Origin: an uncultured Cohaesibacter sp.
Lineage (GTDB): Bacteria > Pseudomonadota > Alphaproteobacteria > Rhizobiales > Cohaesibacteraceae
Length of the DNA: 64,000 bases
Direction: 5' to 3'
Assembly (NCBI RefSeq): GCF_963664735.1
Contig: NZ_OY761553.1
Span: 1,317,303 to 1,381,302, forward strand
Shown: in pieces, positions 23,200 through 41,165 of the stretch
Layout of the letters: the number at the start of each line of letters is the position of its first letter
Position numbering within the stretch: the stretch's first letter is position 1
Notes under the pieces: model-generated
The model's input: only the letters and a program-made list of their open reading frames with translations
Databases searched by the model: none
What the model was told of the DNA's origin: nothing
Program-made: the position numbers and the translations under genes

Positions 23200-24204
23200 T
23201 CAGGCGCCAAAGGCAGGAATGATTTTCTCGCCATATTCCGCGATGATCTGCTCTTCCTTGCCGTTGTCGAGATAGATATTAAACTGCGTAACACCGGCGT
23301 CTTTAAGTACGTTTAGCTTGGCAACATGCTGTTCGGCTGCGCCCAGAACGCTGAAACCCTCGATGATTTCATCGGTAATGAAATCGAGATAGGGATTGTC
23401 GCTCTGGCCATGCTTGGAATAGTCATAACCCTTGCGATCCTTGATATAGGCGGTCAGAGCTGCGGGAATGTCGTCACGCTCCGTGCCATATTTCTCAACG
23501 ATATCGGCGACATGGTTGCCCACCATGGCCGGGAACCAGCGCGTGGCGGCAATGCATTCTTCGCGGGTGCCGAAATAGGCAGGCGCTGCGGACATGACCT
23601 TGTAGTTTGACATGTCACGGCCCGCCTTCTTGCCCTCTTCAATGGCGGTGCTGGCCAGCCATTTGACAATGCTCGGCTCGGCAATCTGAAGGATGAGACC
23701 ATCCCCCACGCGCCCGGCAGAACTCAGCGCCTTTGGGCCATAGGCAGCAACCCAGACCGGCAACTCGTAGCCCTCGGCCCAGGGGAATTTGACCGGTTCG
23801 GGGCATTCGCCATATTGGGCTTCATCGCCGCGCACCAGCGCCTTGACCACATGGGTGAATTCTTCAAGCCGCTTGAGCGGGGCTGGCTTGAGGCCCATGA
23901 CGCGAACGGCACTGTCACCGCGACCAAGACCGATATCAAAGCGGCCTTCGGACTGTTTGGCCAACGAGCCGAACATTGAGGCGGCCAGCGACCAGTCGCG
24001 GGTGTTGGGGTTGGTCACACAGGGGCCAAAGCGCATCTTGGAGGTGTGTTCCATACACATGGCCATGGCCATATAGCTCTCGCGCCAAAGGATATGGCTG
24101 TCATAGAACCAGCAATAGGTGAAGCCTGCATTTTCGGCCTGTCGCACAAGGGCGCGGGCTCGTTTCGGCTCTACAAAGCCTTTAAAGCAAATACCGAATT
24201 CCAT
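23200..24204 (-). CDS. Luciferase-like F420-dependent oxidoreductase (CPS_4043-type)
   Basis: The 334-residue TIM-barrel protein begins MEFGICFKGFVEPKRARALV and contains RFDIGLGRGDSAVRVMGL (about residues 87-104), GYELPVWVAAYGPKALSSAGRVGDG and a C-terminal LKDAGVTQFNIYLD. The pattern matches the F420-binding branch of the LLM superfamily near methylenetetrahydromethanopterin reductase, which I recall as the CPS_4043 group. It is the last gene after a full F420 biosynthesis set and a pyrimidine/hydantoin catabolic set. Its substrate is unknown. I infer a reductase or oxidase for the imported ring compound. Confidence 0.82.
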   Translation of the reverse strand: MEFGICFKGFVEPKRARALVRQAENAGFTYCWFYDSHILWRESYMAMAMCMEHTSKMRFGPCVTNPNTRDWSLAASMFGSLAKQSEGRFDIGLGRGDSAVRVMGLKPAPLKRLEEFTHVVKALVRGDEAQYGECPEPVKFPWAEGYELPVWVAAYGPKALSSAGRVGDGLILQIAEPSIVKWLASTAIEEGKKAGRDMSNYKVMSAAPAYFGTREECIAATRWFPAMVGNHVADIVEKYGTERDDIPAALTAYIKDRKGYDYSKHGQSDNPYLDFITDEIIEGFSVLGAAEQHVAKLNVLKDAGVTQFNIYLDNGKEEQIIAEYGEKIIPAFGA

Positions 24205-24267
24205 CTCTCTCTCCTGTCCTTGTTCTTCAAGTCTTGTCGTTGGTTGGTCGGTGATTGTTGTCAGACA

Positions 24268-24936
24268 TCAATGGTCGGGCGCCCAGATCTTCAGCCCGGC
24301 ATGGGTGAAAGGCACCTGCTTTGAAATATTGATGCGAATGAGAATGGGGGTAATGGCCTCAATGCAGCGGGCGGCTTCCGCGTCTCCGGCATTATAGGCC
24401 GTAACACCTAGCTTGCTGATCAGCTCCATGACCTTCTGGCGGGCAGCCAAAGAATTGCCGCAAACCAGAATGTCGCAATTGATGGCCCATTCAAGGGTTT
24501 TCAGCGTCGTGGCCGATACATTATGCAGCGCCCCCACGACCGGGATTTCCGGCCCGAGCAGAGCTTGTGCGGCCTCGGTTGCCGAACCTTCGGGTGGCAT
24601 TTCCACCTTCTTGGGGTCGCCCTCCTTGAGGGGCACCACGATATCTATCAGGATCTTGCCTTCAAGATGGGGCTTGAGCGCAGTCAAAGTGGCATTATGG
24701 CCCGAGAAAGGCACCGCCAGAATGACCATTTCATCGGCCATTGCAACGGCCTCTTCGTTGCCATGCCCGGTAATGGCAGCACTGCCCCCTGCCAGCTCCT
24801 GTGCCAGAGTTTGGGCTATTTCGGCGGCACGCGCAGCATCGCGCGAGCCGAGAGCGACCGGAACACCGGCGCGCGCAAATCTGAGGGCCAATCCCTGCCC
24901 TTGCGGCCCGGTGCCGCCTATGATTGCGATCGTCAT
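24268..24936 (-). CDS. fno: F420:NADPH oxidoreductase (Fno/NpdG family)
   Basis: The 222-residue protein has the N-terminal NADP fold [18 protein letters not shown] (about residues 4-21) and [26 protein letters not shown] and the [16 protein letters not shown] block typical of NADPH-dependent F420 reductases. It should pass hydride between NADPH and F420, supplying F420H2 for the adjacent LLM enzyme. Its ATG overlaps the cofE stop by 4 nt, so it is made with the cofactor enzymes. Confidence 0.88.
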
Positions 24937-25718
24937 CTGAACATATCCTCTTGTTTCCCTCTCAACAGATCCTCGCCCCGGCTTTCACTCGGACTCCAGT
25001 CGAGCCCGCGAAACAGGACAAGGGGTGTTTTTGCTGCCTTTTTTACAACCAGCCCGGAGGCCGCAGCCAGTTCATCGGCAAAGGCTGCCTCGGTCACCTT
25101 CATGGTGCGCCCCCAGGCATCCTTGTTTCCCTGCTCGCGGATCGTGGCAGGCACTCCGGCAAGCCCGATGGCCACATTGACCTGCGCAATCCGCCAGGGC
25201 CTGCCGAAGGTGTCTGTCATGACCACGCCTATCTGGCAGCCAAAACGGGCTTCCAGTGCATCCCGCATGGCGCGCACGCTTGCGTCGGGGTCTGGCGGCA
25301 GCGTCATTGCGGCATCCGTTTCGGCAATGTTGGATTCATCTACGGCGGCATTGGCGGAAATGAAGCCAAGCCGGTGGCGGCAGATCATGGTGCCTTCGCT
25401 CTGGCCCGGATGGCGGAAGGCGCGAATGACTTCGGCGCTCTCGCGCAGTACGATTTCCACCTTGCGCGGATCCTTGCCCAGCTCCTGCGCATAACGCAGG
25501 GCCTCGTCAGACGGCGTGATGCCGGAAAGCGGATAGATACAGCCCTCGGCTTTGGAAAAGACCTTTTGCGCCACGCAAAGGATATCGCCTCCCTTGGGTT
25601 GATTGCCGCTGGCCACGAGGCAATCGCCGAGGATCGCCGCCAGATCATCCCCTTTCTCGATGTCAGGCACGCCGGGAATGGCGATAATGGAAAGGCTCGA
25701 CAGACTATCCATGCTCAC
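24933..25718 (-). CDS. cofE: Coenzyme F420-0:L-glutamate ligase
   Basis: The 261-residue CofE family protein shows [16 protein letters not shown] (about residues 43-58), [38 protein letters not shown] and [13 protein letters not shown]. These are the metal and GTP-binding blocks of CofE/FbiB-N. It adds the first gamma-linked glutamates to F420-0. Length fits the stand-alone archaeal-type enzyme: the C-terminal FMN reductase domain of actinobacterial FbiB is absent. Start and stop overlap neighbours by 4 nt on both sides. Confidence 0.93.
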
Positions 25719-26374
25719 GCCCTTTCGCCATTGCCAATGGCCATTTTCCAGCCGTCATCGAGATAGTCCAGATCAGCCAGCGTATCGACATCGCGGCGCA
25801 GGCTCTTGAGCGGCAGGATTACCGGCATCATCCCCGCATCAGCAGCCCGGCTGAAATGGCGGGTGAAGGAATCCGGCCCGAAAGAAAATGCGACGGGACA
25901 AGGCAATGGCACGACAAGCGCATTGGTGCCCAGATCCTGCGACGGACAGAGAGCGACGGTTTGCCCGTCAACCGGATAGGACAACAGCCGGGCGATATCC
26001 TCGCGCGATGGATCGGCAAGGTCACCGGGCAGAATGCAGAGACGATCATAGCCAAGATCACATGCCGTTTTGGCGGCCTCAGAGACTGCGCTATTCAGTC
26101 CGGCATTGTCTTGCTCGTTGATATGGCCAATTTGCAGTTCCGCAGCCAAAGCCACGATTTCTGCGCTGTTTGAAACGACCGCAACATCGATCCTGCCCTG
26201 CCCGGAGCCGCTTTGCTTGAGGCCCATGACAGCCTGTTGGATGCGCCGGACAACCGTTTTGAACAGGAGAAGCGCCAGTTGGGAGCGCTCCGCCTCACTC
26301 AAGGCCGGAGCAAGGCGGGATTTCGCCGCGGCGGGGTCCTTCATGGGAATGAGAACCAGCATTCTTGTGCTCAT
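25715..26374 (-). CDS. cofC: 2-phospho-L-lactate (or 3-phosphoglycerate) guanylyltransferase
   Basis: Start at 26374 is chosen because it overlaps the cofD stop as ATGA. The longer frame adds 33 residues without conservation. The 219-residue product has the CofC/FbiD nucleotidyltransferase layout: LVLIPMKDPAAAKSRLAPALSEAERSQL (about residues 6-33), DRLCILPGDLADPS and the SFGPDSFTRHF C-terminal block. It makes the GDP-activated three-carbon acid for CofD. Which acid it prefers (phospholactate, PEP or phosphoglycerate) cannot be told by eye. Confidence 0.9.
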   Translation of the reverse strand: MSTRMLVLIPMKDPAAAKSRLAPALSEAERSQLALLLFKTVVRRIQQAVMGLKQSGSGQGRIDVAVVSNSAEIVALAAELQIGHINEQDNAGLNSAVSEAAKTACDLGYDRLCILPGDLADPSREDIARLLSYPVDGQTVALCPSQDLGTNALVVPLPCPVAFSFGPDSFTRHFSRAADAGMMPVILPLKSLRRDVDTLADLDYLDDGWKMAIGNGERA

Positions 26375-27339
26375 GCAGCCTCTCCATTCAGCTTGCCACC
26401 CATTGCAATTGAAATGACTTGCCGAGCTAGGCGGGCCTTGTCTTGAGCCTCTTTCATCAGGATGTCGGAGCAAGTGGGCGTTATGCCCAGCGCTGCAATT
26501 TCCTGCGCCAGATCCGCATCCTGATGATCGATCAACAGATGCTCGATCAATCCCTGATAATGATGAGCAACGCCGCAGGCGTCGGCACGCAGGCCGAGCG
26601 CGGTCATCATCCTGTCCGCCGGACCCTTGACCACCTTGCCAGCAATGAGCGGGCTGACAGCGATCTTCTTCGCAGAGGCCGCCTTCACCGCATCGCGAAT
26701 AGCGGGAATGGCGAGGATCGGCTCTATGCTGACCAATGGATTGGAGGGAGCGATCACGATCAGATCCGCATGGGCAATGGCAGCAAGCGCTTCGCCCGTT
26801 GGACGCGCCTCAGCGATACCGGAAAATTCCAGCGCTTCTACCTGTGGCGCACATTTCTCGCGGACAAAATATTCCTGAAAGGAGAGCCAGCCCTTTTGCG
26901 TCTTTACTCGCGTTTGCACTCTGTCATCGGTCGGCAAAAGGATGGCAGGCATGACGCCGAAGGCGCGGGCAATATCGCGCGCGATATCAGATGGCCGATG
27001 ACCCTTTGTCCGGCGCATGGTGCGATAGATATGCAGGCCGAAATCCTTATCGCCCAGCATCATCCATGTATCTTCTCCCAATGTTGTCAGGATATCGAGC
27101 GCACGGGTGCCCTCATCGGCCAGCCCCCAGCCCTGCTGGCGGTTGATCCGTCCCGACAAGGTGTAGGTCATGGTGTCGATATCGGGTGACACCCACAGAC
27201 CATGGAATTCCTCGTCATCGGCCACATTGCCGATGATTGTCAGATCGATATTCTCGAGCGCGGCAAGGCCTTCGGCCATTTTTGCGCCGCCGACACCGCC
27301 AGCCAGCAATGTCACCCTTGGTTTATTTGCAAGCGTCAT
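26371..27339 (-). CDS. cofD: 2-phospho-L-lactate transferase
   Basis: The 322-residue protein opens with VTLLAGGVGGAKMAEGLA (about residues 9-26), the Rossmann-like start of CofD, and has ADDEEFHGLWVSPDIDTMTYTL, GDKDFGLHIYRT, and APSNPLVSIEPILAI. It joins the GDP-activated side-chain acid to the deazaflavin Fo, making F420-0 (or its dehydro or glycerate form). It overlaps cofH by 4 nt and cofC by 4 nt. Confidence 0.94.
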   Translation of the reverse strand: MTLANKPRVTLLAGGVGGAKMAEGLAALENIDLTIIGNVADDEEFHGLWVSPDIDTMTYTLSGRINRQQGWGLADEGTRALDILTTLGEDTWMMLGDKDFGLHIYRTMRRTKGHRPSDIARDIARAFGVMPAILLPTDDRVQTRVKTQKGWLSFQEYFVREKCAPQVEALEFSGIAEARPTGEALAAIAHADLIVIAPSNPLVSIEPILAIPAIRDAVKAASAKKIAVSPLIAGKVVKGPADRMMTALGLRADACGVAHHYQGLIEHLLIDHQDADLAQEIAALGITPTCSDILMKEAQDKARLARQVISIAMGGKLNGEAA

Positions 27340-28613
27340 TCGGCGGCCTCCAGCTTCGGCCTTTTGACCGGAAACATCTTGAGGAAGTCGAGCGGATCCT
27401 TGCCGCCGCGCTCGATCAGCGGGGAGAGCGGTTTGGGATCGTGATCATCATAGATATCCAGAATGCGATAATCGCTGGACCGACGCGCCGGCATGCGACC
27501 GGAAGCGCGAATGATCTGCGTTAGCTCATAGGCCGTGATCTCCTGCCCGTGATCCGCACCGGCAGAGCGGGAGATGCTTTCCTCCATCAGGGTACCGCCC
27601 AGATCATTGGCTCCGCGATCAAGCATCGCCAGGGCATGTTGCGGTCCGAGCTTGGTCCAGGAGACCTGAATATTGTCAATGAAGCCATTGAGCATGATGC
27701 GCGAGACTGCATGCATCTTGTCGATTTCATCGATGCTCGGCCCCTTGCGCACCTTGCCGGGATTCTCGGCATAGAGTGCGGTGCCGACATGCTGATAGGA
27801 AAGCGGTACGAATTCGGTAAAGCCGCCGGTGTCCTTCTGGATCGAGCGGACAAGATCGATGTGAGCGGCCCAATGTTCGGGCGCATCAATATGGCCATAC
27901 ATGATGGTGGCTGTGGTGCGGATACCCACTTCATGGGCGGTGCGGACGATCTCGACCCATTTTTCGGTTTTCAGCTTGTCCTTGGTCAGCTGTTTGCGGA
28001 TTTCGGTATCGAGAATTTCGGCGGCCGTTCCGGGCATCGTGCCCAATCCGGCGTCCTTCAATTCTTGCAGAAATTCCCTGTAGGGCTTGCGGCTCTTGGA
28101 TGCGCCATACCAGACCTCGAAAGGCGAGAAGGCATGCAGATGCATGTCGGGCAGCTCCGCCTTGATGGCGCGGCACAGCTCTTCATAATAGGAGCCGGGC
28201 AATTTCGGATGCAGCCCGCCCTGAATGCAGACCTCCGTCGCACCCCGATCCCATGCCTCATGGCAGCGCCGCACCACTTCGGCAACGGAATGCCACTGGG
28301 CATCCTCATCCTCGGCCCGCTTGGCGAAATTGCAGAATTTGCAGCCCATATAGCAGATGTTGGTGAAATTGATGTTCCGGTTCACCGTGAAGGTGACCAG
28401 ATCGCCATTGGTCTTCTGGCGCAGAAGATCGGCAGTCTTGTAGATAGCCTGCTTGTCGGCTTCTCTTTCTGCCTTGAATAGCAACACCGCCTCTTGTTGC
28501 GAAATCTCTCGCCCTTCCAGAGCCTTGTCGAGAACAGCCCCGACCGGCAAGGAAAGCCCTTTGGCAACCAGACCATCACTCGGATTCAGGATTTTTTCCA
28601 TTTCATTGCACAT
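27336..28613 (-). CDS. cofH: Fo synthase subunit 2 (radical SAM)
   Basis: The 425-residue protein has the radical SAM cluster motif CYMGCKFC (CxxxCxxC, about residues 87-94) after FTVNRNINFTNI, then TEVCIQGGLHPKLPG, MHLHAFSPFEV and GTAAEILDTEIRKQL. These mark CofH, which joins a tyrosine-derived radical to 5-amino-6-ribitylaminouracil. AAGGAG lies 8 nt before the ATG. It starts 4 nt after the cofG stop. Separate CofG and CofH, not fused FbiC, are used here. Confidence 0.94.
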   Translation of the reverse strand: MCNEMEKILNPSDGLVAKGLSLPVGAVLDKALEGREISQQEAVLLFKAEREADKQAIYKTADLLRQKTNGDLVTFTVNRNINFTNICYMGCKFCNFAKRAEDEDAQWHSVAEVVRRCHEAWDRGATEVCIQGGLHPKLPGSYYEELCRAIKAELPDMHLHAFSPFEVWYGASKSRKPYREFLQELKDAGLGTMPGTAAEILDTEIRKQLTKDKLKTEKWVEIVRTAHEVGIRTTATIMYGHIDAPEHWAAHIDLVRSIQKDTGGFTEFVPLSYQHVGTALYAENPGKVRKGPSIDEIDKMHAVSRIMLNGFIDNIQVSWTKLGPQHALAMLDRGANDLGGTLMEESISRSAGADHGQEITAYELTQIIRASGRMPARRSSDYRILDIYDDHDPKPLSPLIERGGKDPLDFLKMFPVKRPKLEAAE

Positions 28614-28617
28614 GTTC

Positions 28618-29817
28618 TCATTCTCCTTGCGTCAGATGGCGCTGCTCGCGCGCAAGTCCGTTGCCTGCGGCCATGGCGGCAATGCGGTCTTGCAATTTGG
28701 GACTTAGATAATCACTGCCCTGTTGCAGATAGGCGGGATAGATCGGCAGGCGCTCCCTGAGCGCGAAACCGGATGTCTTGCAGCTCTCTGCCAGCGCCTC
28801 GATCTGCGGCCAGGCATGCTGGGGGTTGATGAAATCTATGGTCACCGGCGATATCCCGCCCCAGTCATTGATGCCCGCATCAAGATAGGCGATATGGCGG
28901 GCACTGAGATTGGGCGGTGCCTGAAGGCTGATGTCGGGCGATAAGATGATCCGGGCTGCAGCAATGGTTCTGAGCATATCCTCAAGGCTCGGCTCGGGAT
29001 GGCTGGCCATGGCGATATCCGGCTTGGTCTGGAAATTCTGGATGATGACTTCCTGAATGTGACCGTGGCGGGCGTGGCTGTCATTGATGGCGTGAAGAGC
29101 CTCGATGCGCTCGGCCCATGTTTCGCCAATGCCGATCAGCAGACCGGTGGTAAAGGGCACCTTGCGCTGCCCTGCCCGCTCCAGCGTGCGCAGCCTTTGC
29201 AGCGGCACCTTGTCCGGACAGGCATGATGCGCCCCGCCCTTGCCGGTGAGGCGTCGGGAGGTGGTTTCCAGCATCATGCCCATGGAAACGGAAACCGGAC
29301 GCAGTTTTGCCAGCTCTTCATCGCTGAGTGTCCCCGCATTGACATGGGGCAGCATGGATGTCTCGGCCAGCACCAGTACGCACATGGCGGCGAGATAATC
29401 GGTCATGCTGTCATAACCGAGCAATGACAGCGCCTTGCGGGCCTTTTCATAGCGCAGCTCGGGTTTTTCGCCGAGACTGAAGAGCAGTTCCTTGCAGCCC
29501 TTTGCCTCGCCCTTGCGGGCGGTAGCCAGCACCTGATCGGGGGACATGATATTGGCATCTGGATGATCGGGATGTTTGACAAAGGTGCAATAGGCGCAGG
29601 TGTCACGGCACATATTTGTCAGTGGCACGAAAGCCTTGCGCGAATAGGTCACCGTGCGGCCCCAATGGCCATCACGAATATCCGCAGCACGTGCCATGAG
29701 GCTTTCCAGATCGGACTTGAGCAAATGGCGGGCTTCATCAAAAAGCTCTCGCGAGCCGGTTGGAATGCCCGAAACCATCTCTGCCGATCGATTATTGAGT
29801 TCACTCTGTATCAGCAT
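28618..29817 (-). CDS. cofG: Fo synthase subunit 1 (radical SAM)
   Basis: The 399-residue reading uses the ATG at 29817. A 63-residue longer frame lacks conservation. The radical SAM motif CRDTCAYC (CxxxCxxC, about residue 72) follows YSRKAFVPLTNM. ELLFSLGEKPE, GLLIGIGETWAERIEAL, and DWGGISPVTIDFINPQ are typical CofG blocks. It closes the deazaflavin ring to Fo. The gene opens the coupled cofG-H-D-C-E-fno run, 242 nt after the ABC binding-protein gene. I see no clear promoter in that gap. Confidence 0.93.
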   Translation of the reverse strand: MLIQSELNNRSAEMVSGIPTGSRELFDEARHLLKSDLESLMARAADIRDGHWGRTVTYSRKAFVPLTNMCRDTCAYCTFVKHPDHPDANIMSPDQVLATARKGEAKGCKELLFSLGEKPELRYEKARKALSLLGYDSMTDYLAAMCVLVLAETSMLPHVNAGTLSDEELAKLRPVSVSMGMMLETTSRRLTGKGGAHHACPDKVPLQRLRTLERAGQRKVPFTTGLLIGIGETWAERIEALHAINDSHARHGHIQEVIIQNFQTKPDIAMASHPEPSLEDMLRTIAAARIILSPDISLQAPPNLSARHIAYLDAGINDWGGISPVTIDFINPQHAWPQIEALAESCKTSGFALRERLPIYPAYLQQGSDYLSPKLQDRIAAMAAGNGLAREQRHLTQGE

Positions 29818-30059
29818 GAATTTGCCTGTGCCTTCACATTGTCTTGTCTGAATTCCGCCGCCAGCCAGCCCCGCCCTGCCCGATGACACCTCGATTTCGA
29901 GACAAGGAGGGCCTGTTCGCGCAAATGGCATTTGCGCGGCGACTGAATTTCCGTGTTGTTCGATTGCTTTGGGGACTGCACTGCCGGTCTGTCCGGCAGG
30001 CCGCAATCTTGCCTGCAGCCAGCAGAAGCCCGGCTGCAGGAAATGTCAGCGACCGGCTG

Positions 30060-31062
30060 TTATTTCAGAGCCAGATCGGTGATCTTGTGGGTCCATGCGC
30101 CTTCCGGTGCTGCGGAGATAACCGGAGCAGAGCCGCCGCTCATCAGCGTCTTGACGGTGCGCTCATAGTCGGCCGGATCAAGTGCGCCGTTGGAGCCTGC
30201 GGTCAGCTTGGCCACTTCGCTCATCATGCGCTTCTGGTGCTTTTCGGTCTGGGCGCCGGTTTCGTCATATTCCAGAACGATATCGGCAGCTTCATCCGGA
30301 TTGGCTTCGGCATATTTCCAGCCCTTCATGGAAGCACGAACGAAACGGACCAGCTTGTCGACTTCGGCATCGTCCGAGAGTTTCTCTTCCAGAACATAGA
30401 GGCCGTCTTCCAGTGTGGCCACGCCCTGATCTTCATATTTGAAGGTGATCAGATCGTCCGGCGAGATGCCAGCGTCGATAACCTGCCAATATTCATTATA
30501 GGTCATGGTGGAGATACAGGCCGCCTGCTTCTGCAGTAGAGGATCCACGTTGAAGCCCTGCTTGAGAACGGTGACGCCCTTGTCACCGCCTTCGGTCGGG
30601 ATACCGAGAATGCTCATCCAGCTCAGGAACGGATATTCATTACCGAAGAACCAGACGCCGAGGGTCTTGCCGGGGAAATCTTCAGGGGTCTTGACGCCGC
30701 TTTCCTTGAGGCAGGTCAGCATCATGCCCGAAGATTTGTATGGCTGAGCGATGTTGACCAGCGGCAGACCCTTTTCGCGGGCAGCAAGGGCGGAAGGCAT
30801 CCAGTCGACGACAACGTCAGCGCCACCACCGGCCAGAATCTGCGTTGGCGCGATGTCCCGGGCCGCCCGGTTTGATGGTGACGGCAAGGTCTTCTTCTTC
30901 ATAGAAGCCTTTTTCCAGTGCAACATAATAGCCGGCAAACTGGGCCTGCGTGACCCATTTGAGCTGAAGGGTAAAGTCATCTGCCGCGTGGGCTCCGGTG
31001 GCTGCAAAGATCGAGGCAGCTGCACATGCGCCAATCGCAAAATTCTTCAATGTGTCTCTCAT
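30060..31062 (-). pseudogene. NMT1/THI5-type ABC substrate-binding protein, apparent frameshift
   Basis: The protein is spread over two frames. The first runs from the ATG at 31062: signal peptide MRDTLKNFAIGACAAASIF, then LQLKWVTQAQFAGYYVALEKGFY, the NMT1 start. It changes to another frame near 30857-30862, where GGCCCGGGACATCGCG appears to hold one extra G. Removing it restores PGGPDIAPTQ followed by ILAGGGADVVVDWMPSALA and the rest to the stop at 30060. The full product would be about 333 residues and bind a pyrimidine-like ligand. It may be a real mutation or an assembly error. Confidence 0.8.
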
Positions 31063-31142
31063 CTTCTATTCCCTTTGGTGTTCCATAAAGGAGTTGGTTA
31101 AGGTGTTGCTTGTTTTTTTCTTTGGTTATTGAATGGGGTCTT

Positions 31143-31988
31143 TTAGCCCCTTTGAGATGGATGCCAGAAGGTCACCCCTTTTTCGATTGCGGCGACCGCC
31201 CCGTAAAACAGGGAACCGGCAATGGCCGCAACCGTAATTTCCGCCCAGACCATATCGAGCCCGAGCTTGCCCACCTCGGTAGAGATGCGGAAGCCCATGC
31301 CGACAATTGGCGAGCCGAAAAATTCCGCCACAATGGCCCCGATCAGCGCCGAGGTGGTGGAGATTTTCAGGCCATTGAAAATGAATGGCATCGCCGCAGG
31401 CAGTCGCAATTTCAACAATGTATCCGAATAGCTGGCGGCATAGGTTTTCATCAGGTCCCGCTGCATATGGTCGGTATCGGACAGGCCCTGCACGCAATTG
31501 ACCAGCATGGGGAAGAAGACCATGACGACGACCACGGCAGCCTTTGACTGCCAGTCGAAGCCGAACCACATCACAAGGATTGGTGCGATGCCGACAATCG
31601 GCAAGGCGGCAACGAAGTTGCCGACCGGCAGCAGGCCCATTTGCAAAAATGGCACCCGATCGATCAGGATCGCGGTCAGGAAGGCCGCCCCGCACCCCAT
31701 GACATAGCCGGTCAGTGCCCCCTTGACGAAGGTCTGGAAGAAATCGAGCCAGAGGATATCCGTCGAGGCGGCAAAGCGGGTGGCGATCGCCGAAGGCGGC
31801 GGCAGGATCACGCCCGGTATTTCAAGCCCCCGAGCCAGCAATTCCCATGCGGCGATGATGGTTGCACCGAAAATGAAGGGCACCAGAAAGCGCACCAGAA
31901 GCGTGTCATGCGCGCTCGAGCGGGAAAGCCTGACATTGACCCAGGAGGCCAGAATCCAGATGACGAAAGCTGACAGAACCAAGATCAT
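31143..31988 (-). CDS. ABC transporter permease (NMT1/taurine-type), second
   Basis: Start at 31988 overlaps the upstream permease stop by 4 nt (ATGA). The 281-residue protein has about six hydrophobic spans, ILPPPSAIATRF near the N-terminus and the EAA-type loop DLMKTYAASYSDTLLKLRLPAAMPFIFNGLKIS. This fits SsuC/ThiX-like permeases. It partners with the preceding permease and the upstream ATPase for import of an organic ring compound. Confidence 0.9.
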   Translation of the reverse strand: MILVLSAFVIWILASWVNVRLSRSSAHDTLLVRFLVPFIFGATIIAAWELLARGLEIPGVILPPPSAIATRFAASTDILWLDFFQTFVKGALTGYVMGCGAAFLTAILIDRVPFLQMGLLPVGNFVAALPIVGIAPILVMWFGFDWQSKAAVVVVMVFFPMLVNCVQGLSDTDHMQRDLMKTYAASYSDTLLKLRLPAAMPFIFNGLKISTTSALIGAIVAEFFGSPIVGMGFRISTEVGKLGLDMVWAEITVAAIAGSLFYGAVAAIEKGVTFWHPSQRG

Positions 31989-32851
31989 CGCACCATCCCC
32001 ATTCTTTTCAGTACCGATTTTTCGGCCAGCCCCACCAGCGCGACCAGTCCGGCGGCCAGCAAGGCGGCGGCAAACAGCGCGGCCCACATCTGGATGGTCT
32101 GGCCATAATAGGAGCCGGTCAGCAGGCGCGCACCCAAGCCACGGATCGCACCGGTTGGCAATTCGCCAACGATGGTGCCGACCAGCGAGGCGGCAATACC
32201 CACCTTCATCGAGGTGAAGAGATAGGGCACTGAGGATGGCAGGCGCAGCTTGTAGAAGGCATCGCTTCTGGAGGCATTATAGGTCTTCAACAGATCCATC
32301 TGCATGTGATCGGGCGCTCGCAGGCCCTTGACCATGCCGACCAACACGGGGAAGAAACTGAGATAGGCCGAGATGATCGCCTTGGGGATCAGCCCCTGAA
32401 TGCCGACAGAATTGAGCACCACGATGATCATCGGCGCGATGGCCAGAATGGGCACGGTCTGGGAGGCGATGGCCCACGGCATGACGCTCATGTCCATGGC
32501 GCGAATATAGATGATGCCGACAGACAGCACGATGCCCAGCAGCGTGCCGACCACGAAGCCCAAAAGGGTCGCTTCCAGCGTGATCCAGCCATGGAAGACC
32601 AGCGAACGCTTGGAGGTGATCTTCTTGCCAATGGTGGTATCCCAAAGCTCGGCGGCCACCTGATGGGGCGCTGGCAAAACTGGGCGTTCCTGCGTCCATG
32701 TATCCTTGACCAGTTCGGAAAAGGACAGCTCGACCTTGGCGCGGGCGGCCTGATCATAGGCCCATTTGGCATTCATTTTCACGGCCGCGCCATACCAGAG
32801 CGCAACAATGACCAGAACGACCGTGCAAATGGCAAATAGCTTACGCATCAT
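31985..32851 (-). CDS. ABC transporter permease (NMT1/taurine-type), first
   Basis: Two adjacent ATG codons (32851, 32848) overlap the end of the ATPase gene by 11 or 8 nt, so either start is possible. The 288-residue protein has an N-terminal span, a periplasmic segment (ERPVLPAPHQVAAELWDTT), then several spans and the EAA loop DLLKTYNASRSDAFYKLRLPSSVPYLFTSMKVG. It is the partner of the next permease. Confidence 0.9.
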   Translation of the reverse strand: MMRKLFAICTVVLVIVALWYGAAVKMNAKWAYDQAARAKVELSFSELVKDTWTQERPVLPAPHQVAAELWDTTIGKKITSKRSLVFHGWITLEATLLGFVVGTLLGIVLSVGIIYIRAMDMSVMPWAIASQTVPILAIAPMIIVVLNSVGIQGLIPKAIISAYLSFFPVLVGMVKGLRAPDHMQMDLLKTYNASRSDAFYKLRLPSSVPYLFTSMKVGIAASLVGTIVGELPTGAIRGLGARLLTGSYYGQTIQMWAALFAAALLAAGLVALVGLAEKSVLKRMGMVR

Positions 32852-33641
32852 CCGCTCCGTCACCATGTCCGGCGCGCAGACCCTCACGCACACGATGCGC
32901 GATATCGATAAATTCCTGACTGTCGCGGATGGAAAGCGGTCGCTCCTTGGGCAATGTGCTTTCGATCACGTCGGTGATGCGGCCCGGTCTCGGGCTCATG
33001 ACGACAATCTTGGTGGAGAGATAGACCGCCTCGGGGATCGAGTGGGTCACGAAGCCGATGGTCTTGCCGGTGCTTGACCAGAGATGCAGCAGCTGCTCGT
33101 TGAGATGATCGCGGACGATTTCGTCCAGCGCTCCAAAGGGTTCGTCCATCAAGAGGATATCGGCATCAAAAGACAGCGCCCGCGCGATGGAAGCGCGTTG
33201 CTGCATGCCGCCGGACAATTGCCATGGAAACTTGTTGCCGAAGCCTTCCAGATCGACCAGCTTGAGTACCTTCTCGACGCGGGCATTCTGCTCGGCCTTG
33301 GTAAAACCCATAATTTCGAGCGGCAGCTTGATATTGCGGGCGATGGTGCGCCATGGATAAAGCCCGGCGGCCTGAAAGACATATCCATAGGCCCGGTCCT
33401 TTCGCGCCAGTTCGGGTGTTGTGCCATTGACCATCAATTCGCCCGAGGTCGGGTTTTCCAGTGCTGCGATGGCTCTGAGGAAAGTTGTCTTGCCGCAACC
33501 GGACGGACCAATGAAGCTGACAAAGTCGCCCTTGTCGATCTGAAGATTGACATCCTTGAGCGCATGGACCGGCCCATCGTTGGTCTGAAAGGTCAGACAG
33601 AGGTCCTTGGCAGAGACCACATGGAAGTCGGAGTGCATCAT
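32841..33641 (-). CDS. ABC transporter ATPase (SsuB/ThiZ-type)
   Basis: The 266-residue ATPase has Walker A GPSGCGKTTFLRAIA (about residues 44-58), YVFQAAGLYPWRTIARNI, signature LSGGMQQRASIARAL, Walker B ILLMDEPFGALDEIVR and switch His in GFVTHSIPEAVYL. The PW-R-T block and GALDE are typical of nitrate/sulfonate/pyrimidine importers. It follows the dihydropyrimidinase gene by 93 nt and overlaps the first permease. Confidence 0.93.
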   Translation of the reverse strand: MMHSDFHVVSAKDLCLTFQTNDGPVHALKDVNLQIDKGDFVSFIGPSGCGKTTFLRAIAALENPTSGELMVNGTTPELARKDRAYGYVFQAAGLYPWRTIARNIKLPLEIMGFTKAEQNARVEKVLKLVDLEGFGNKFPWQLSGGMQQRASIARALSFDADILLMDEPFGALDEIVRDHLNEQLLHLWSSTGKTIGFVTHSIPEAVYLSTKIVVMSPRPGRITDVIESTLPKERPLSIRDSQEFIDIAHRVREGLRAGHGDGADDA

Positions 33642-33734
33642 CGTTGCTTGTTCCCGTTCGGATTATGCCTGTTTAAATAAGCTTGCCCTGCGGATGCATA
33701 TCGCACCCGCAAGGATTTGTTCACCGGCTCGCAT

Positions 33735-35189
33735 TCAGACGCCGCTTGGCGGAATGCCTGCGCGCACGATCGGGCGTGGCGAGACCAGTTCCTTCCATGT
33801 TGACAGCGCCTTGTTGACCGCCCCGTAAGGCTGGCGGGCAACAAATTTGCCGTGGCCCTCTTCGGTTTTCAGCGTGCTTTCCTCGACCACGACCTTGCCG
33901 CGGGAGAGCGTGAAGCGCGGCAGGCCGGTCACTTCCTTGCCCTCGAAGACGCTGTAATCGATGGTCGATACCTGAGTTGCGGCGGAAATGGTCTTCTTCA
34001 GCTTGGGATCCCAAACCACGATGTCGGCATCAGCCCCGACAAGGATCGCGCCCTTTTTCGGATACATGTTGAGGATCTTGGCGATATTGGTTGAGGTGAC
34101 GGCGACAAATTCATTCATCGTTAGACGACCGGTGCCGACACCATAGGTCCAGAGCATCGGCATGCGATCTTCAAGGCCGCCGGTGCCGTTCGGGATCTTG
34201 GTGAAATCGCCAACGCCATAGCGTTTCTGCTCGGTGGTGAAGGCGCAATGGTCGGTCGCAACGCAGGAAAGCGAACCGGCCTGAAGCCCGGCCCACAGGC
34301 TGTCCTGATGCATCTTGTTGCGGAAGGGCGGGCTCATGACGCGGCGTGCGGCGTGATCCCAGTCCTTGTCGAAATATTCGCTCTCATCAAGGGTCAGATG
34401 CTGGATCAGTGGCTCACCATAAACCCGGATGCCCTTCTGGCGGGCGCGGCGGATGGCTTCATGGCTCTGCTCGCAGGACGTATGGACGACATAGAGCGGC
34501 ACACCAGCCATATCGGCCAGCATGATGGCGCGGTTGGTGGCCTCGCCCTCCACTTCCGGCGGACGGGAATAGGCATGGGCTTCAGGGCCAGTGTTACCCT
34601 GATCGAGCAGCTTTGCCGACATGGACGCCACGACATCACCATTCTCGGCATGGACCAGCGGCATCGCCCCCAGCTCGGCGCAGCGCTGGAAGGAGGCGAA
34701 CAGCTCGTCGTCATTGACCATCAGCGAGCCTTTATAAGCAAGGAAATGCTTGAAGGTGTTGATACCCTTCTCGCGCACCACGGTTTCCATTTCATTGAAG
34801 ACCTGCTCGCCCCACCAGGTGATCGCCATATGGAAGGAATAGTCGCAGGTGGCCATCGTTGACTTGTTGTCCCAGCGCATCAGGGCATCCATCAGGCTCT
34901 GGCCGGGATCGGGCAGGCAGAAGTCAACCACCATGGTGGTGCCTCCGGAAACGGCAGCCCGGGTGCCCGAGGAAAAGTCATCTGCCGAATAAGTGCCCAT
35001 GAATGGCATTTCCAGATGCACATGCGGGTCGATGCCACCCGGCATGACATAACATCCCGTGGCATCCAGAATTTCATCACCGGAAAGATTTGAACCGATT
35101 TCGGTAATGATACCATCCTCGATTTTCACATCGGCTTCATAAGTCAGATCGGCGGTGACAATGGTGCCGCCCTTAATCACTTTGCTCAT
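33735..35189 (-). CDS. hydA: Dihydropyrimidinase/hydantoinase
   Basis: Start at 35189 follows AAGAGGAAA. The 484-residue amidohydrolase has metal ligands GGIDPHVHLEMPF (about residues 52-64), the carboxylated lysine in HFLAYKGSLMV, PLVHAENGDVV, VVHTSCEQSHEA and CVATDHCAFTTEQK. It opens 5,6-dihydrouracil or dihydrothymine to N-carbamoyl-beta-amino acids, or acts on hydantoins. With the amidohydrolase and MmsA genes it fits reductive pyrimidine breakdown. Confidence 0.93.
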   Translation of the reverse strand: MSKVIKGGTIVTADLTYEADVKIEDGIITEIGSNLSGDEILDATGCYVMPGGIDPHVHLEMPFMGTYSADDFSSGTRAAVSGGTTMVVDFCLPDPGQSLMDALMRWDNKSTMATCDYSFHMAITWWGEQVFNEMETVVREKGINTFKHFLAYKGSLMVNDDELFASFQRCAELGAMPLVHAENGDVVASMSAKLLDQGNTGPEAHAYSRPPEVEGEATNRAIMLADMAGVPLYVVHTSCEQSHEAIRRARQKGIRVYGEPLIQHLTLDESEYFDKDWDHAARRVMSPPFRNKMHQDSLWAGLQAGSLSCVATDHCAFTTEQKRYGVGDFTKIPNGTGGLEDRMPMLWTYGVGTGRLTMNEFVAVTSTNIAKILNMYPKKGAILVGADADIVVWDPKLKKTISAATQVSTIDYSVFEGKEVTGLPRFTLSRGKVVVEESTLKTEEGHGKFVARQPYGAVNKALSTWKELVSPRPIVRAGIPPSGV

Positions 35190-35248
35190 TGATTTTCCTC
35201 TTTTAGATATGCAACCCTTAGACAACCTAGTGTTGTGAGGATTGAGCT

Positions 35249-35503
35249 ATGCGCGAACCTATTAAGTACTTGTTCCTTCTGGAGCTTCGTAAAATATTTA
35301 AAGAAGCCAAAAATGCAGGCATTTCCGTTGTCGAAATTCGCGCTAGCGACTTGGCAGAGCGAGCGGGAAAGAAATACCGGATACCAGCATGCTGCAATGC
35401 GATGCGAAGCATCATGACTGATAAAGACCAAGAGATCCTTCGCCCAACAGTTCAGAAGGACAGCACCACAAATATCTACCGGTATGATCTGTCTGGTAGA
35501 TAA
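35249..35503 (+). CDS. Small uncharacterised protein inserted antisense between hydA and hyuC
   Basis: A TGAGG site lies 8 nt before the ATG. The 84-residue product is basic and partly helical (KYLFLLELRKIFKEAKNAG), then VVEIRASDLAERAG, KYRIPACCNAMRSIM and a TNIYRYDL end. The CCNAM block and the following polar turn recall small domains with a (H/Y)RxPxCCxxM motif that I have seen near nucleic-acid enzymes, but I cannot name the family. It is the only plus-strand gene in a 15-kb minus-strand run. Confidence 0.6.
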   Translation: MREPIKYLFLLELRKIFKEAKNAGISVVEIRASDLAERAGKKYRIPACCNAMRSIMTDKDQEILRPTVQKDSTTNIYRYDLSGR

Positions 35504-35514
35504 GGTCATCTTCC

Positions 35515-36756
35515 TTATTCCGAGATCTCGGCTGTTTCCAAAACCGCCTGCAAAAGCACGTCGGCCCCGGCTGTTGCCCATTCCTTGGAAATGTCTTCCG
35601 CTTCGTTATGGGAAAGCCCGTCAACGCATGGGCACATGATCATCGTGGCGGGGGCTACCTTGGCAGCCCAGCAGGCATCATGACCGGCACCAGAGACGAT
35701 ATCCATATGCGAATAGCCAAGATCAATGGCTGCATTGCGCACCCGATCAACCAGCGTCGGATCAAAGGTCACAGGATCGAACTGGCCGACCTGTTCGACC
35801 GAACAGCCAACGCCAAGTTCCTCGCAGATGACGGCGGCCTTTTCCTTGATGGCATCACGCATGCCGTTTAGCTTGTCGATATCGACGGTGCGGATGTCGA
35901 CGGTGAAAGTGACCGTACCGGGCAAAACATTGCGCGAGTTTGGCGAGAAGGTCACCTGCCCGACACCGCCGACAGCATTTGGCTGGGCGGCCATTGTCAC
36001 TTCCTGCAACATTTCGAAGATGCGGGCCATGGCAAGGCCGGCATTGACGCGCATCGCCATGGGGGTGGATCCGGTATGGGCTTCCTTGCCCGTCAGGGTA
36101 AATTCCAGCCACCAGAGACCCTGACAATGGGTAACGACGCCGATTTCCTTTTTCTCGACTTCAAGGATCGGCCCCTGCTCGATGTGATATTCGAAATAGG
36201 CGTGCATCTTGCGGGCGCCGACTTCCTCGTCGCCGACCCAGTCGATGCGCTTCAACTCGTCGCCATAGGTCTTGCCTTCCAGATCCTTGCGGCCATAGGC
36301 ATAATCAAGCGTATGGATACCGGCAAAGACGCCGGACGCCAGCATCGGCGGAGAGAAGCGGCCGCCTTCCTCATTGGCCCAGTTGACCACGACAATCGGA
36401 TGTTTGGTCTTGATATCGGCATCATTGAGCATGCGCACCAGTTCGAGCGCTGAAAGCACGCCGAGTACGCCGTCATATTTGCCGCCCGTGGGCTGGGTGT
36501 CGAGATGTGAGCCGACATAGACCGGCAGCGCATCGGGGTCGGTGCCCGGACGGGTCATGAACATGGAGCCCATCTTGTCGACCCCCATGGAAAGGCCCGC
36601 ATCCTCGCACCATGTCTGGAACAGGGCGCGCCCTTCGGCGTCTTCATCGGTCAGGGTCTGGCGATTGTTGCCACCAGCGACGCCCGGACCGATTTTCGCC
36701 ATGTCCATCAGAGACTGCCAAAGACGGTCTCCATCCACTCGCAGATTCTTTTTCAT
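35515..36756 (-). CDS. hyuC: N-carbamoyl amino-acid/beta-ureidopropionate amidohydrolase (M20)
   Basis: The 413-residue hydantoinase/carbamoylase family enzyme has zinc-ligand blocks VGSHLDTQPTGGKYDGVLGVLSALE (about residues 80-104), NWANEEGGRFSPPML, the YFEYHIEQGPILE Gln/His block, and GKEAHTGSTPM in the lid domain. It hydrolyses N-carbamoyl-beta-alanine or similar ureido acids to the amino acid, CO2 and ammonia. It is the step after hydA. The gene between them on the opposite strand interrupts the run without disrupting either frame. Confidence 0.93.
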   Translation of the reverse strand: MKKNLRVDGDRLWQSLMDMAKIGPGVAGGNNRQTLTDEDAEGRALFQTWCEDAGLSMGVDKMGSMFMTRPGTDPDALPVYVGSHLDTQPTGGKYDGVLGVLSALELVRMLNDADIKTKHPIVVVNWANEEGGRFSPPMLASGVFAGIHTLDYAYGRKDLEGKTYGDELKRIDWVGDEEVGARKMHAYFEYHIEQGPILEVEKKEIGVVTHCQGLWWLEFTLTGKEAHTGSTPMAMRVNAGLAMARIFEMLQEVTMAAQPNAVGGVGQVTFSPNSRNVLPGTVTFTVDIRTVDIDKLNGMRDAIKEKAAVICEELGVGCSVEQVGQFDPVTFDPTLVDRVRNAAIDLGYSHMDIVSGAGHDACWAAKVAPATMIMCPCVDGLSHNEAEDISKEWATAGADVLLQAVLETAEISE

Positions 36757-36884
36757 GATTTGGTTCCCCTGTCATATTAATTTTGCCCAATGGGCTATTC
36801 TGGAAGTGCGCCGCCGGTTTTCCGGTCTGTTTTCAGGCGCTTAAATATTATTGTTAAACCAGTTGCGCGGCCCCGCCGCTCTCC

Positions 36885-38375
<1,491 letters not shown>

Positions 38376-38497
38376 CACGCATCCCCTCAACTCTGTTTGA
38401 GCCTTTGTCCCTCTGGGTGCTATTTGACCGGTGCAATTTTATTTTGCGATTTTTTTGCCAAACGCCTCTTTCGTGGTAAGAACGCTTGCATCATCCG

Positions 38498-38669
38498 CAC
38501 GATCGGTCAATATTTTTCTGCACGATCGGTCAGCTTTTTGAGTGTTTGCGAAACATTCGTGCATTTGCTCAAAAAACAACCAAGAAAAGAGAATTTTTAA
38601 TGCAGGAATTTTTATAATGATCTGAGTTTATCTACAGGTCTGTCCAAGAAATACATGTGATTGACCGAT
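38498..38669. promoter_or_regulatory. Probable operator cluster for the divergent RutR-like regulator
   Basis: The 334-nt gap between mmsA and the TetR gene holds CACGATCGGTCA at 38498-38509 and again at 38521-38532, and the inverted half TTGACCGAT at 38661-38669. RutR sites are built on TTGACCA/TGGTCAA halves, so these look like variant RutR-type half sites. The rest of the gap is AT-rich with no other gene. Confidence 0.55.
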
Positions 38670-38709
38670 AACTACCAAGCCAGCGCAGAATAAATATACA
38701 GGTAATAAA

Positions 38710-39336
38710 ATGACCACCAAGAACTCCACAAAACAGAAAAAAAACAGGGCTCATAATATTGAAAATATATTGTCTGCTGCGGAAGTAGTTTTTGCGCAAT
38801 TCGGTTATAATGGTGCCTCTATCAGTCGTATTGCAGATGAGGCTGGCCTGCCGAAGTCAAATGTCGTTTATTACTTTTCTACCAAAGAGTTACTGTATAG
38901 GACTGTAGTAGAAGACATCTTCAATGTGTGGCGCGCTGCGGCAGATGAAATCGTTGAAGATGCAGACCCCAGAGAAGCTTTAGGCAGCTATATCGATACC
39001 AAGCTGGAGCTGGCCAAAACACGGCCCTATGGCTCCAAGGTCTGGGCCAATGAAATCATTCAGGGCGCGCCGATTGTTCAGGACTATTTGGAAACCGAGC
39101 TGCGCTCATGGACTGAAGAGAGAATCAACGTCATCCACAAATGGATTGCAGCGGGCAAGATTCGCCCGATCAGCCCGAAGCACTTGCTCTTCACGATTTG
39201 GGCAACAACGCAGCATTATGCCGACTTCAAGCATCAGATCTCTACCCTGAATGCGGGTAGTGACCTGAATGCTGAACAATGGGAAGAGACTAAGCAGGCG
39301 GTCAAAGACCTTCTACTGTTTGGCATTTGCCACTAG
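38710..39336 (+). CDS. TetR-family regulator, RutR-like
   Basis: The 208-residue protein has a lysine-rich N-terminus and the TetR HTH FGYNGASISRIADEAGLPKSNVVYYFSTKELLY (about residues 32-64). The C-terminal domain with RPYGSKVWANEIIQGAPIVQDYL resembles RutR, which senses uracil and thymine. It lies divergent from the pyrimidine-type cluster and tail-to-tail (3-nt overlap) with the decarboxylase gene. It is the best candidate for control of the mmsA-hyuC-hydA run. Confidence 0.85.
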   Translation: MTTKNSTKQKKNRAHNIENILSAAEVVFAQFGYNGASISRIADEAGLPKSNVVYYFSTKELLYRTVVEDIFNVWRAAADEIVEDADPREALGSYIDTKLELAKTRPYGSKVWANEIIQGAPIVQDYLETELRSWTEERINVIHKWIAAGKIRPISPKHLLFTIWATTQHYADFKHQISTLNAGSDLNAEQWEETKQAVKDLLLFGICH

Positions 39337-41006: not shown

Positions 41007-41165
41007 AGTGTCTGAGGCCTCTAAGCTGGATAGAATAATTTGGACATGACGCAACGGTCAGGACAAGGCGATCAATATCATAAAGGACTGATTTGTCCAG
41101 TATGTCCAATCGCTTCGCCATTGACCTATTCCAAGCACTCCATGCTCGACACCCCAAGTTCGGGC

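What the first reader, a model, noticed from the sequence alone, without database searches (positions are those of the whole stretch)
23200..39336. Predicted F420-dependent reductive pyrimidine (or related ring) catabolic locus
mmsA, hyuC, hydA and an NMT1-type ABC importer form the familiar reductive pyrimidine set, next to a RutR-like regulator. The usual dihydropyrimidine dehydrogenase (PreT/PreA, PydA) is absent here. In its place, on the same strand, lie a complete F420 biosynthesis set, an F420:NADPH oxidoreductase and an LLM F420-type enzyme. The simplest reading is that F420H2, recharged from NADPH by Fno, reduces uracil or thymine to the dihydro form for hydA. I know of no described F420-dependent pyrimidine reductase. 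The alternative is an oxidative step on a hydantoin-type substrate. The ABC genes sit between catabolism and cofactor genes, tying import to cofactor supply.
Basis: partly seen in the sequence, partly recalled or inferred. Interest (0 to 1): 0.88.

Follow-up and report, generated by a model that had tools for sequence, protein, structure and literature searches.

The report
Predicted F420-dependent pyrimidine breakdown operon
This marine bacterium appears to break down uracil and thymine with a reductase that runs on cofactor F420, made by genes in the same operon, instead of the usual iron-sulfur flavin enzyme; that would give F420 a job in Proteobacteria, where its role is an open question.

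Summary
On one strand (window 38390-23200) lie mmsA, hyuC, hydA, an NMT1-type ABC importer, cofG-H-D-C-E, fno and an LLM enzyme of family TIGR03842, beside a divergent RutR-like regulator. The complete genome holds one DHO_dh-family protein, a quinone-type PyrD, so no PreA was found.

In 80 named loci the LLM recurs with hydA/hyuC in several gene orders, including the preTA-rutR-hyuC-hydA-ABC order with preTA replaced. In 199 Paracoccus-family genomes the LLM is in 7 of 17 hydA+ preA- genomes but 2 of 169 hydA+ preA+ ones. In Halopseudomonas 6 of 37 genomes have it, the same 6 have hydA, none has preA. RutR-type operators stand before cofG in many relatives. Related hydA genes pair with either reductase.

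Best reading: the LLM is an F420H2-dependent dihydropyrimidine dehydrogenase, recharged by Fno: a new electron-donor variant of the Pyd pathway. Substrate and cofactor use are inferred, not assayed. Against: 17 of 50 LLM genomes also carry PreA, so another ring substrate is possible; the window lacks a clear RutR operator.

The parts
23200..24204 (-). LLM-class F420-dependent oxidoreductase (TIGR03842); proposed F420H2-dependent uracil/thymine reductase
   Evidence: PF00296; TIGR03842 503.7 bits (cut-off 295.45); AF2 model closest to Mer, TM 0.79
24268..24936 (-). fno/npdG, NADPH:F420 oxidoreductase; proposed F420 recharging step
   Evidence: TIGR01915 189.2/149.8
24933..25718 (-). cofE, F420-0:glutamate ligase
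   Evidence: TIGR01916 227.1/180.65
25715..26473 (-). cofC, guanylyltransferase; true start probably about 100 bases further in (inference)
   Evidence: TIGR03552 134/105, match from residue 40
26371..27339 (-). cofD, phospholactate (or analogue) transferase
   Evidence: TIGR01819 277.5/257.45
27336..28613 (-). cofH, FO synthase subunit 2
   Evidence: TIGR03551 487.2/374.1
28618..30006 (-). cofG, FO synthase subunit 1 (start uncertain)
   Evidence: TIGR03550 461.8/213.35
30060..31040 (-). NMT1/THI5-type substrate-binding protein of the importer; N-terminal part lies in another frame
   Evidence: PF09084 89.2 bits; three-frame translation against L038 and L040
31143..32087 (-). ABC permease 1
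   Evidence: PF00528
31985..32893 (-). ABC permease 2
   Evidence: PF00528
32841..33641 (-). ABC ATPase
   Evidence: PF00005
33735..35225 (-). hydA, dihydropyrimidinase
   Evidence: TIGR02033 605.3/393.25; best solved match 3dc8 dihydropyrimidinase, 938.5 bits
35515..36756 (-). hyuC, probable beta-ureidopropionase (N-carbamoyl-beta-alanine amidohydrolase)
   Evidence: TIGR01879 380.9/204; best solved matches 8apz and 8aq0 (N-carbamoyl-L-amino-acid hydrolase) and 8c46 (N-carbamoyl-beta-alanine amidohydrolase)
36885..38390 (-). mmsA, CoA-acylating (methyl)malonate-semialdehyde dehydrogenase
   Evidence: TIGR01722 697/448.5
38391..38709 (.). mmsA/rutR promoter region with three exact TTGACC half-sites (38424, 38505, 38661); no full RutR-type operator
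   Evidence: best full-operator match has 4 mismatches
38710..39336 (+). RutR-like TetR regulator
   Evidence: PF08362 164.7 bits; below the curated RutR cut-offs

Best explanation
The locus is a reductive pyrimidine-degradation (Pyd) operon in which dihydropyrimidine dehydrogenase (PreTA/PydA) has been replaced by a different fold: an LLM-class enzyme, TIGR03842, that takes a hydride from reduced cofactor F420. The ABC importer brings in the base. NADPH reduces F420 through Fno. The LLM enzyme reduces the 5,6 double bond of uracil and/or thymine. HydA opens the dihydropyrimidine ring, HyuC releases ammonia, CO2 and the beta-amino acid, a transaminase (not in this cluster) makes the semialdehyde, and MmsA makes acetyl- or propionyl-CoA. 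F420 biosynthesis is part of the operon, so the cofactor is made when pyrimidines are used, under a RutR-type regulator. Shown here: gene content, no PreA found, co-occurrence, exchange with preTA, operators in relatives, Mer-like fold. Inferred: F420H2 as donor, uracil/thymine as substrate, direction of the reaction, regulation in this genome.
For: Gene set over curated cut-offs; no PreA in a complete genome. Linkage: HydA or HyuC in 46 of 80 fetched loci, 33 of 44 with full flanks; some Pyd-type neighbour (HydA, HyuC, NMT1 SBP, RutR-like, AptA, MmsA or the aminotransferase of L085; thresholds mine) in 65 of 80; several orders. Same order as preT-preA-rutR-hyuC-hydA(-ABC) loci with (cof)-fno-LLM in place of preTA. 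199 genomes: 7 of 17 hydA+ preA- have the LLM against 2 of 169 hydA+ preA+, p 4.6e-7 uncorrected for kinship; 9 of 9 LLM genomes have hydA. Halopseudomonas genus: LLM 6 of 37, hydA in the same 6 and 0 of 31 others, preA 0 of 37. RutR-type site with at most 3 mismatches before cofG in 27 of 55 loci, about 0.7 expected in shuffles, and before the LLM in three Roseibium loci. HydA tree: partner label changes 4 times, 3 forced by well-supported branches; the window's HydA is most like a preTA-linked one (82%, L154). In nine genomes without CofD beside the LLM, 8 have it elsewhere. One Halopseudomonas-group region also holds an NCS1 nucleobase symporter and a Tsx channel. Fold closest to Mer, an F420-dependent reductase.
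Against: No enzyme assay exists. 17 of 50 LLM genomes also encode PreA; in at least two of them (L076/L128, L070/L133) each locus has its own hydA and hyuC, which suggests redundancy or another substrate. 15 of 80 loci show no Pyd-type neighbour in the stretch held, and 34 no HydA or HyuC (some are cut at contig ends). 10 of 17 hydA+ preA- genomes lack the LLM. 14 of the 50 genomes are MAGs, so absence there is weaker; three others (L038, L039, L042) have a PreA-model match of 124-142 bits, below the cut-off of 335 and covering only its first 320 of 422 positions, not identified. The window's promoter region has no full RutR-type operator and its TetR protein is below the RutR cut-offs. Mer's Glu6 is Cys or Thr here, so the proton donor is unknown.
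Confidence: 0.76

Rival explanations
1. The LLM is an F420H2-dependent reductase feeding HydA, but its natural substrate is another ring: thymine only, a modified or N-substituted pyrimidine, or a purine-derived ring.
For: 17 of 50 LLM genomes also have PreA, and at least two carry two hydA/hyuC sets. A paper predicts an F420-dependent LLM reductase for yanthine in Chloroflexota uric-acid clusters (PMC12507026, passages read). Dihydropyrimidinases are broad (recalled).
Against: 33 of 50 LLM genomes tested have no PreA over the cut-off, so no PreA-type enzyme would make dihydrouracil there; the same hydA lineages pair with both reductases; RutR-type operators are shared between preTA and F420 loci.
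Confidence: 0.18
2. The LLM is an FMN-dependent oxygenase like RutA that opens the pyrimidine ring oxidatively.
For: RutA is also an LLM-superfamily enzyme acting on uracil (recalled).
Against: RutA model TIGR03612 is not among the 22 families that the LLM matches at E 0.001; nearest solved structures are F420-dependent Mer; Fno lies beside it in 69 of 80 loci; HydA would not be needed; the 80 loci show one weak RutB-like hit, 28% in L088.
Confidence: 0.03
3. F420 and the LLM serve an unrelated function and the Pyd genes are chance neighbours.
For: 15 of 80 loci have no Pyd-type neighbour in the stretch held; G215 has the cof-fno-LLM set with no window Pyd protein matched in 20 kb.
Against: Recurrent linkage in different orders, matched presence of LLM and hydA in Halopseudomonas, RutR-type sites before cofG.
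Confidence: 0.03

Closest known systems
Reductive pyrimidine (Pyd) pathway with PreTA/PydA (NAD(P)H) and its ferredoxin variant PydAc (PMC7332683; first of four parts read)
   Same: Same hydrolases HydA (PydB) and HyuC (PydC), MmsA; in rhodobacteral preTA loci also the RutR-like regulator, NMT1 importer and gene order
   Different: First step by an unrelated LLM-fold enzyme with F420H2 as proposed donor; cofactor biosynthesis in the operon; no DHO_dh-type reductase
Putative F420-dependent LLM yanthine reductase of Chloroflexota uric-acid clusters (PMC12507026; passages read)
   Same: Predicted replacement of a PydA-like reductase by an F420 LLM enzyme in a reductive ring-degradation cluster
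   Different: Purine-derived ring, other phylum, no F420 biosynthesis linkage reported in the passages read; the F420 enzyme there is a prediction too
Mer, methylenetetrahydromethanopterin reductase
   Same: Best fold and sequence match, TM 0.79, 26% identity to 8qpl; F420 reductase
   Different: Below the Mer cut-offs (127.4/276, 125.5/348.7); residue 6 is Cys or Thr instead of Glu; different genomic context
Rut pathway (RutA, LLM fold)
   Same: LLM superfamily and RutR-type regulator
   Different: Oxidative FMN chemistry (recalled); no RutA match for the LLM; HydA kept

Membership tests
TIGR03842 LLM class F420-dependent oxidoreductase | score over curated cut-off | tested here: met
   503.7 against 295.45
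TIGR03842 LLM class F420-dependent oxidoreductase | use of F420 as cofactor | not testable with these tools
   fold nearest to F420-bound Mer and linked F420 genes only
Reductive Pyd pathway | dihydropyrimidinase and ureidopropionase | tested here: met
   TIGR02033 605.3/393.25; TIGR01879 380.9/204; nearest solved 3dc8, 8apz, 8c46
Reductive Pyd pathway | PreTA/PydA-type dihydropyrimidine dehydrogenase | tested here: not met
   only PF01180 protein in the genome is PyrD class 2
Reductive Pyd pathway | dihydropyrimidine formed from uracil or thymine | not testable with these tools
   needs enzyme assay
F420 biosynthesis | CofG, CofH, CofD, CofC, CofE | tested here: met
   all over curated cut-offs; which F420 variant is made was not tested
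Mer | equivalog score and Glu6 | tested here: not met
   127.4/276 and 125.5/348.7; Cys in 64, Thr in 18 of 82
RutA / Rut pathway | TIGR03612 match of the LLM | tested here: not met
   not among families at E 0.001
RutA / Rut pathway | a RutA elsewhere in the window's genome | not tested
RutR | equivalog score | tested here: not met
   191.9/368 and 166.6/230; PF08362 domain met
RutR regulon | operator in the promoter region | tested here: inconclusive
   window: best 4 mismatches, three TTGACC half-sites; relatives: 27 of 55 cofG upstream regions at 3 mismatches or fewer

The most novel reading that the evidence does not exclude
An F420H2-dependent dihydropyrimidine dehydrogenase of the LLM fold, evolutionarily unrelated to PreTA/PydA, which together with operon-borne F420 biosynthesis forms a self-sufficient, horizontally mobile pyrimidine-catabolic module; pyrimidine catabolism is then a main reason why many marine Alphaproteobacteria and some Pseudomonadaceae make F420, and why F420 is seen only in traces without pyrimidine induction.
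Probability: 0.7. Interest if true: 0.86.

Novelty: new variant of a known kind. Interest (0 to 1): 0.82.

Why it matters
A 2021 review says that in bacteria outside Actinobacteria no F420-dependent reductase or F420-reducing dehydrogenase had been studied experimentally, that why Proteobacteria make F420 is unanswered, and that Paracoccus denitrificans makes only traces (PMC8498797, section 23 read; passages). This locus gives a concrete, testable answer, a function for TIGR03842 (model type 'hypoth_equivalog'), a fourth proposed electron donor for uracil reduction besides NADPH, NADH and ferredoxin, and a case of repeated exchange of unrelated enzymes before the same downstream hydrolase.

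Tried and rejected
Cys6 as proton donor (in place of Mer's Glu6; a catalytic Cys in dihydropyrimidine dehydrogenase is recalled): rejected, since residue 6 is Thr in 18 of 82 LLM proteins, including Pyd-linked ones such as L057 and L102.

Full RutR operator in the window: nine matches with up to 3 mismatches (mean 2.7 in 100 shuffles, none reached nine), but all have 3, most lie inside genes, and none is between mmsA and rutR; the best in the 400 bases before rutR has 4. The consensus TTGACCANNTGGTCAA is recalled; a search for it with RutR in the paper library gave nothing. It is backed here by exact copies before hyuC/rutR in two preTA loci (L130, L133). PMC5343134 (passages) lists RutR as a pyrimidine-catabolism regulator with taxon-specific motif changes, so a changed motif in Cohaesibacter is possible.

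Chance neighbourhood, a hidden PreA and a RutA-like oxygenase were considered and disfavoured. The 'intergenic' count is relative to my marker genes only, so some of those sites may lie in other genes.

Literature: ten searches of one open-licence library listed no F420-dependent pyrimidine reductase; subscription papers are mostly not held. Papers opened: PMC8498797 (section 23 and passages), PMC12507026, PMC5343134, PMC6279831 (passages), PMC7332683 (first of four parts).
Full report
What is there. The window is from a complete 4.94 Mb genome in one contig that is close to Cohaesibacter: LLM relatives at 97% identity are in two Cohaesibacter species. Fourteen minus-strand genes run from mmsA (38390) to the LLM gene (23200), with a divergent TetR/RutR-like gene at 38710. 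Each F420 biosynthesis enzyme, the NADPH:F420 reductase, the LLM, HydA, HyuC and MmsA pass at least one curated NCBIfam cut-off. HydA is nearest to a solved dihydropyrimidinase (3dc8) and HyuC to 8apz/8aq0 and 8c46, the latter named N-carbamoyl-beta-alanine amidohydrolase.

The usual first enzyme was not found. The whole genome has a single PF01180 protein, a quinone-type PyrD that scores 38.4 against the PreA cut-off of 335. The genome has one match to TIGR03842 at E 0.001, the window's.

Linkage in relatives. A scan with an alignment of four LLM proteins found 315 relatives; the 80 best were kept. By their titles they are mostly Alphaproteobacteria, many of marine genera, and a few Gammaproteobacteria; L065 is labelled Nocardioides and is probably contamination. 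With thresholds that I set, HydA and HyuC each lie in 41 loci and one or the other in 46 of 80 (33 of 44 with full flanks), Fno in 69, CofD in 69, RutR-like in 35, the NMT1 binding protein in 29, and at least one Pyd-type neighbour in 65. Several arrangements occur: Cohaesibacter order; hydA-hyuC divergent from cofG (Pseudovibrio, Paracoccus); cof-fno-LLM-hyuC-hydA-ABC; LLM-hyuC-hydA-ABC without cof genes nearby; and cof-fno-LLM-hyuC with rutR, mmsA and an AptA-type aminotransferase in Halopseudomonas. Eleven loci had no CofD; two of these are cut at contig ends, and of the nine others' genomes 8 have CofD elsewhere. No PreT or PreA hit at E 1e-5 was found in the 80 loci.

Exchange with preTA. 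Six PreA loci from genomes that carry both systems were fetched; five show preT-preA-rutR-hyuC-hydA, four of them followed by ABC genes in the stretch held, and the Roseibium one has only a binding protein nearby. Several F420 loci have that order with fno-LLM in place of preTA. A HydA tree of 60 rows (37 F420-linked; 23 preTA-linked, 18 of these called so because HydA lies within about 6 kb of PreA) needs four changes of partner, three forced by well-supported branches; the Thalassovita preTA-linked and Ruegeria F420-linked HydA are sisters. The window's HydA has its highest identity (82%) to a preTA-linked one.

Phyletic pattern. In 199 genomes of the Paracoccus denitrificans family: LLM 9, PreA 170, HydA 186. 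Among HydA+ genomes the LLM is in 7 of 17 without PreA and in 2 of 169 with it (Fisher p 4.6e-7, not corrected for kinship). All 9 LLM genomes have HydA. In 37 genomes of the genus of L104 (Halopseudomonas by title) the LLM is in 6, HydA in exactly those 6, PreA in none; in 5 of the 6 HydA lies about 10 to 11.4 kb from the LLM, in the sixth on another contig. One such region (L161) also holds an NCS1 nucleobase symporter and a Tsx nucleoside channel. In 50 of the 80 named genomes PreA was over cut-off in 17 and not in 33; the 17 are 16 rhodobacteral genomes and one Roseibium. In the class-wide draw the LLM is rare: 3 of 241 genomes over cut-off, the window's own included. Of the other two, G215 has the whole cof-fno-LLM set at 75% LLM identity with no window Pyd protein matched in 20 kb, and G164 carries divergent tandem copies near cof genes.

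Regulation. With the recalled RutR consensus TTGACCANNTGGTCAA, 53 sites with at most 2 mismatches occur in 88 sequences (1.65 Mb; L161 overlaps L108) against 1 in a single base shuffle; 43 lie outside marker genes. They stand before hyuC in preTA loci (L128, L130, L131, L132, L133) and F420 loci (L070, L103, L109), before cofG in 15 loci, and before the LLM in Roseibium (L105, L111, L116). In 55 cofG upstream regions 27 have a site with at most 3 mismatches; shuffles predict 0.7 and random stretches of the same loci 2.5. Sequences are related, so these are not independent events. The window has only three TTGACC half-sites between mmsA and rutR (0.27 expected, P 0.003, post hoc).

The enzyme. 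An AF2 model (pLDDT 86.4) is closest to Mer (8qpl, TM 0.79), then other F420 enzymes and luciferases. PMC6279831 (passages) places the MERs in a 'reductase' group of F420 LLM enzymes. The window protein falls below the Mer cut-offs and lacks Mer's Glu6. [quoted passage not shown] one of four such loci scanned), and no Fno was matched in those four stretches, so the F420-recharging enzyme seems exchanged while the TIGR03842 LLM is kept.

Literature. NADPH, NADH and ferredoxin variants of the uracil reductase are described in PMC7332683 (first of four parts read). An F420 LLM enzyme is predicted for yanthine reduction in Chloroflexota (PMC12507026, passages). The F420 review states that roles in Proteobacteria are unresolved (PMC8498797, section 23 and passages). 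No F420-dependent pyrimidine reductase turned up in ten searches (listed in Tried and rejected).

Verdict. I put about 0.9 on F420H2 as the donor, 0.85 on the LLM supplying HydA's substrate, and about 0.75 on uracil and/or thymine being the ring.

Noticed in passing
window about 30850-30880: The NMT1 binding-protein gene appears split between two reading frames, whereas Cohaesibacter relatives L038 and L040 have it in one frame; sequencing error or a real break, not resolved.
   Followed up: partly
[quoted passage not shown]
   Followed up: partly
L161 4730-9140: A Halopseudomonas-group module carries an NCS1 nucleobase symporter and a Tsx nucleoside channel; no NMT1 binding protein of the window's type was matched there.
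   Followed up: partly
L083, L085, L087, L112 and others: A class III aminotransferase close to glutamate-1-semialdehyde aminomutases accompanies 13 of 80 loci, possibly the beta-alanine or 3-aminoisobutyrate transaminase step.
   Followed up: no
L090 11101-12012: An EamA-type transporter recurs in 15 loci, in many of them between the LLM and hyuC.
   Followed up: no
L034, L035: Genome G164 has divergent tandem TIGR03842 genes (about 55% identical to the window LLM) beside F420 genes; function may differ.
   Followed up: no
L065: A contig labelled Nocardioides marinus carries an alphaproteobacterial-type F420-LLM-RutR locus; probably contamination.
   Followed up: no
window 39333-41054: An indolepyruvate-decarboxylase-like TPP enzyme lies next to the regulator (TIGR03393 463 bits, below the cut-off of 946).
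   Followed up: no
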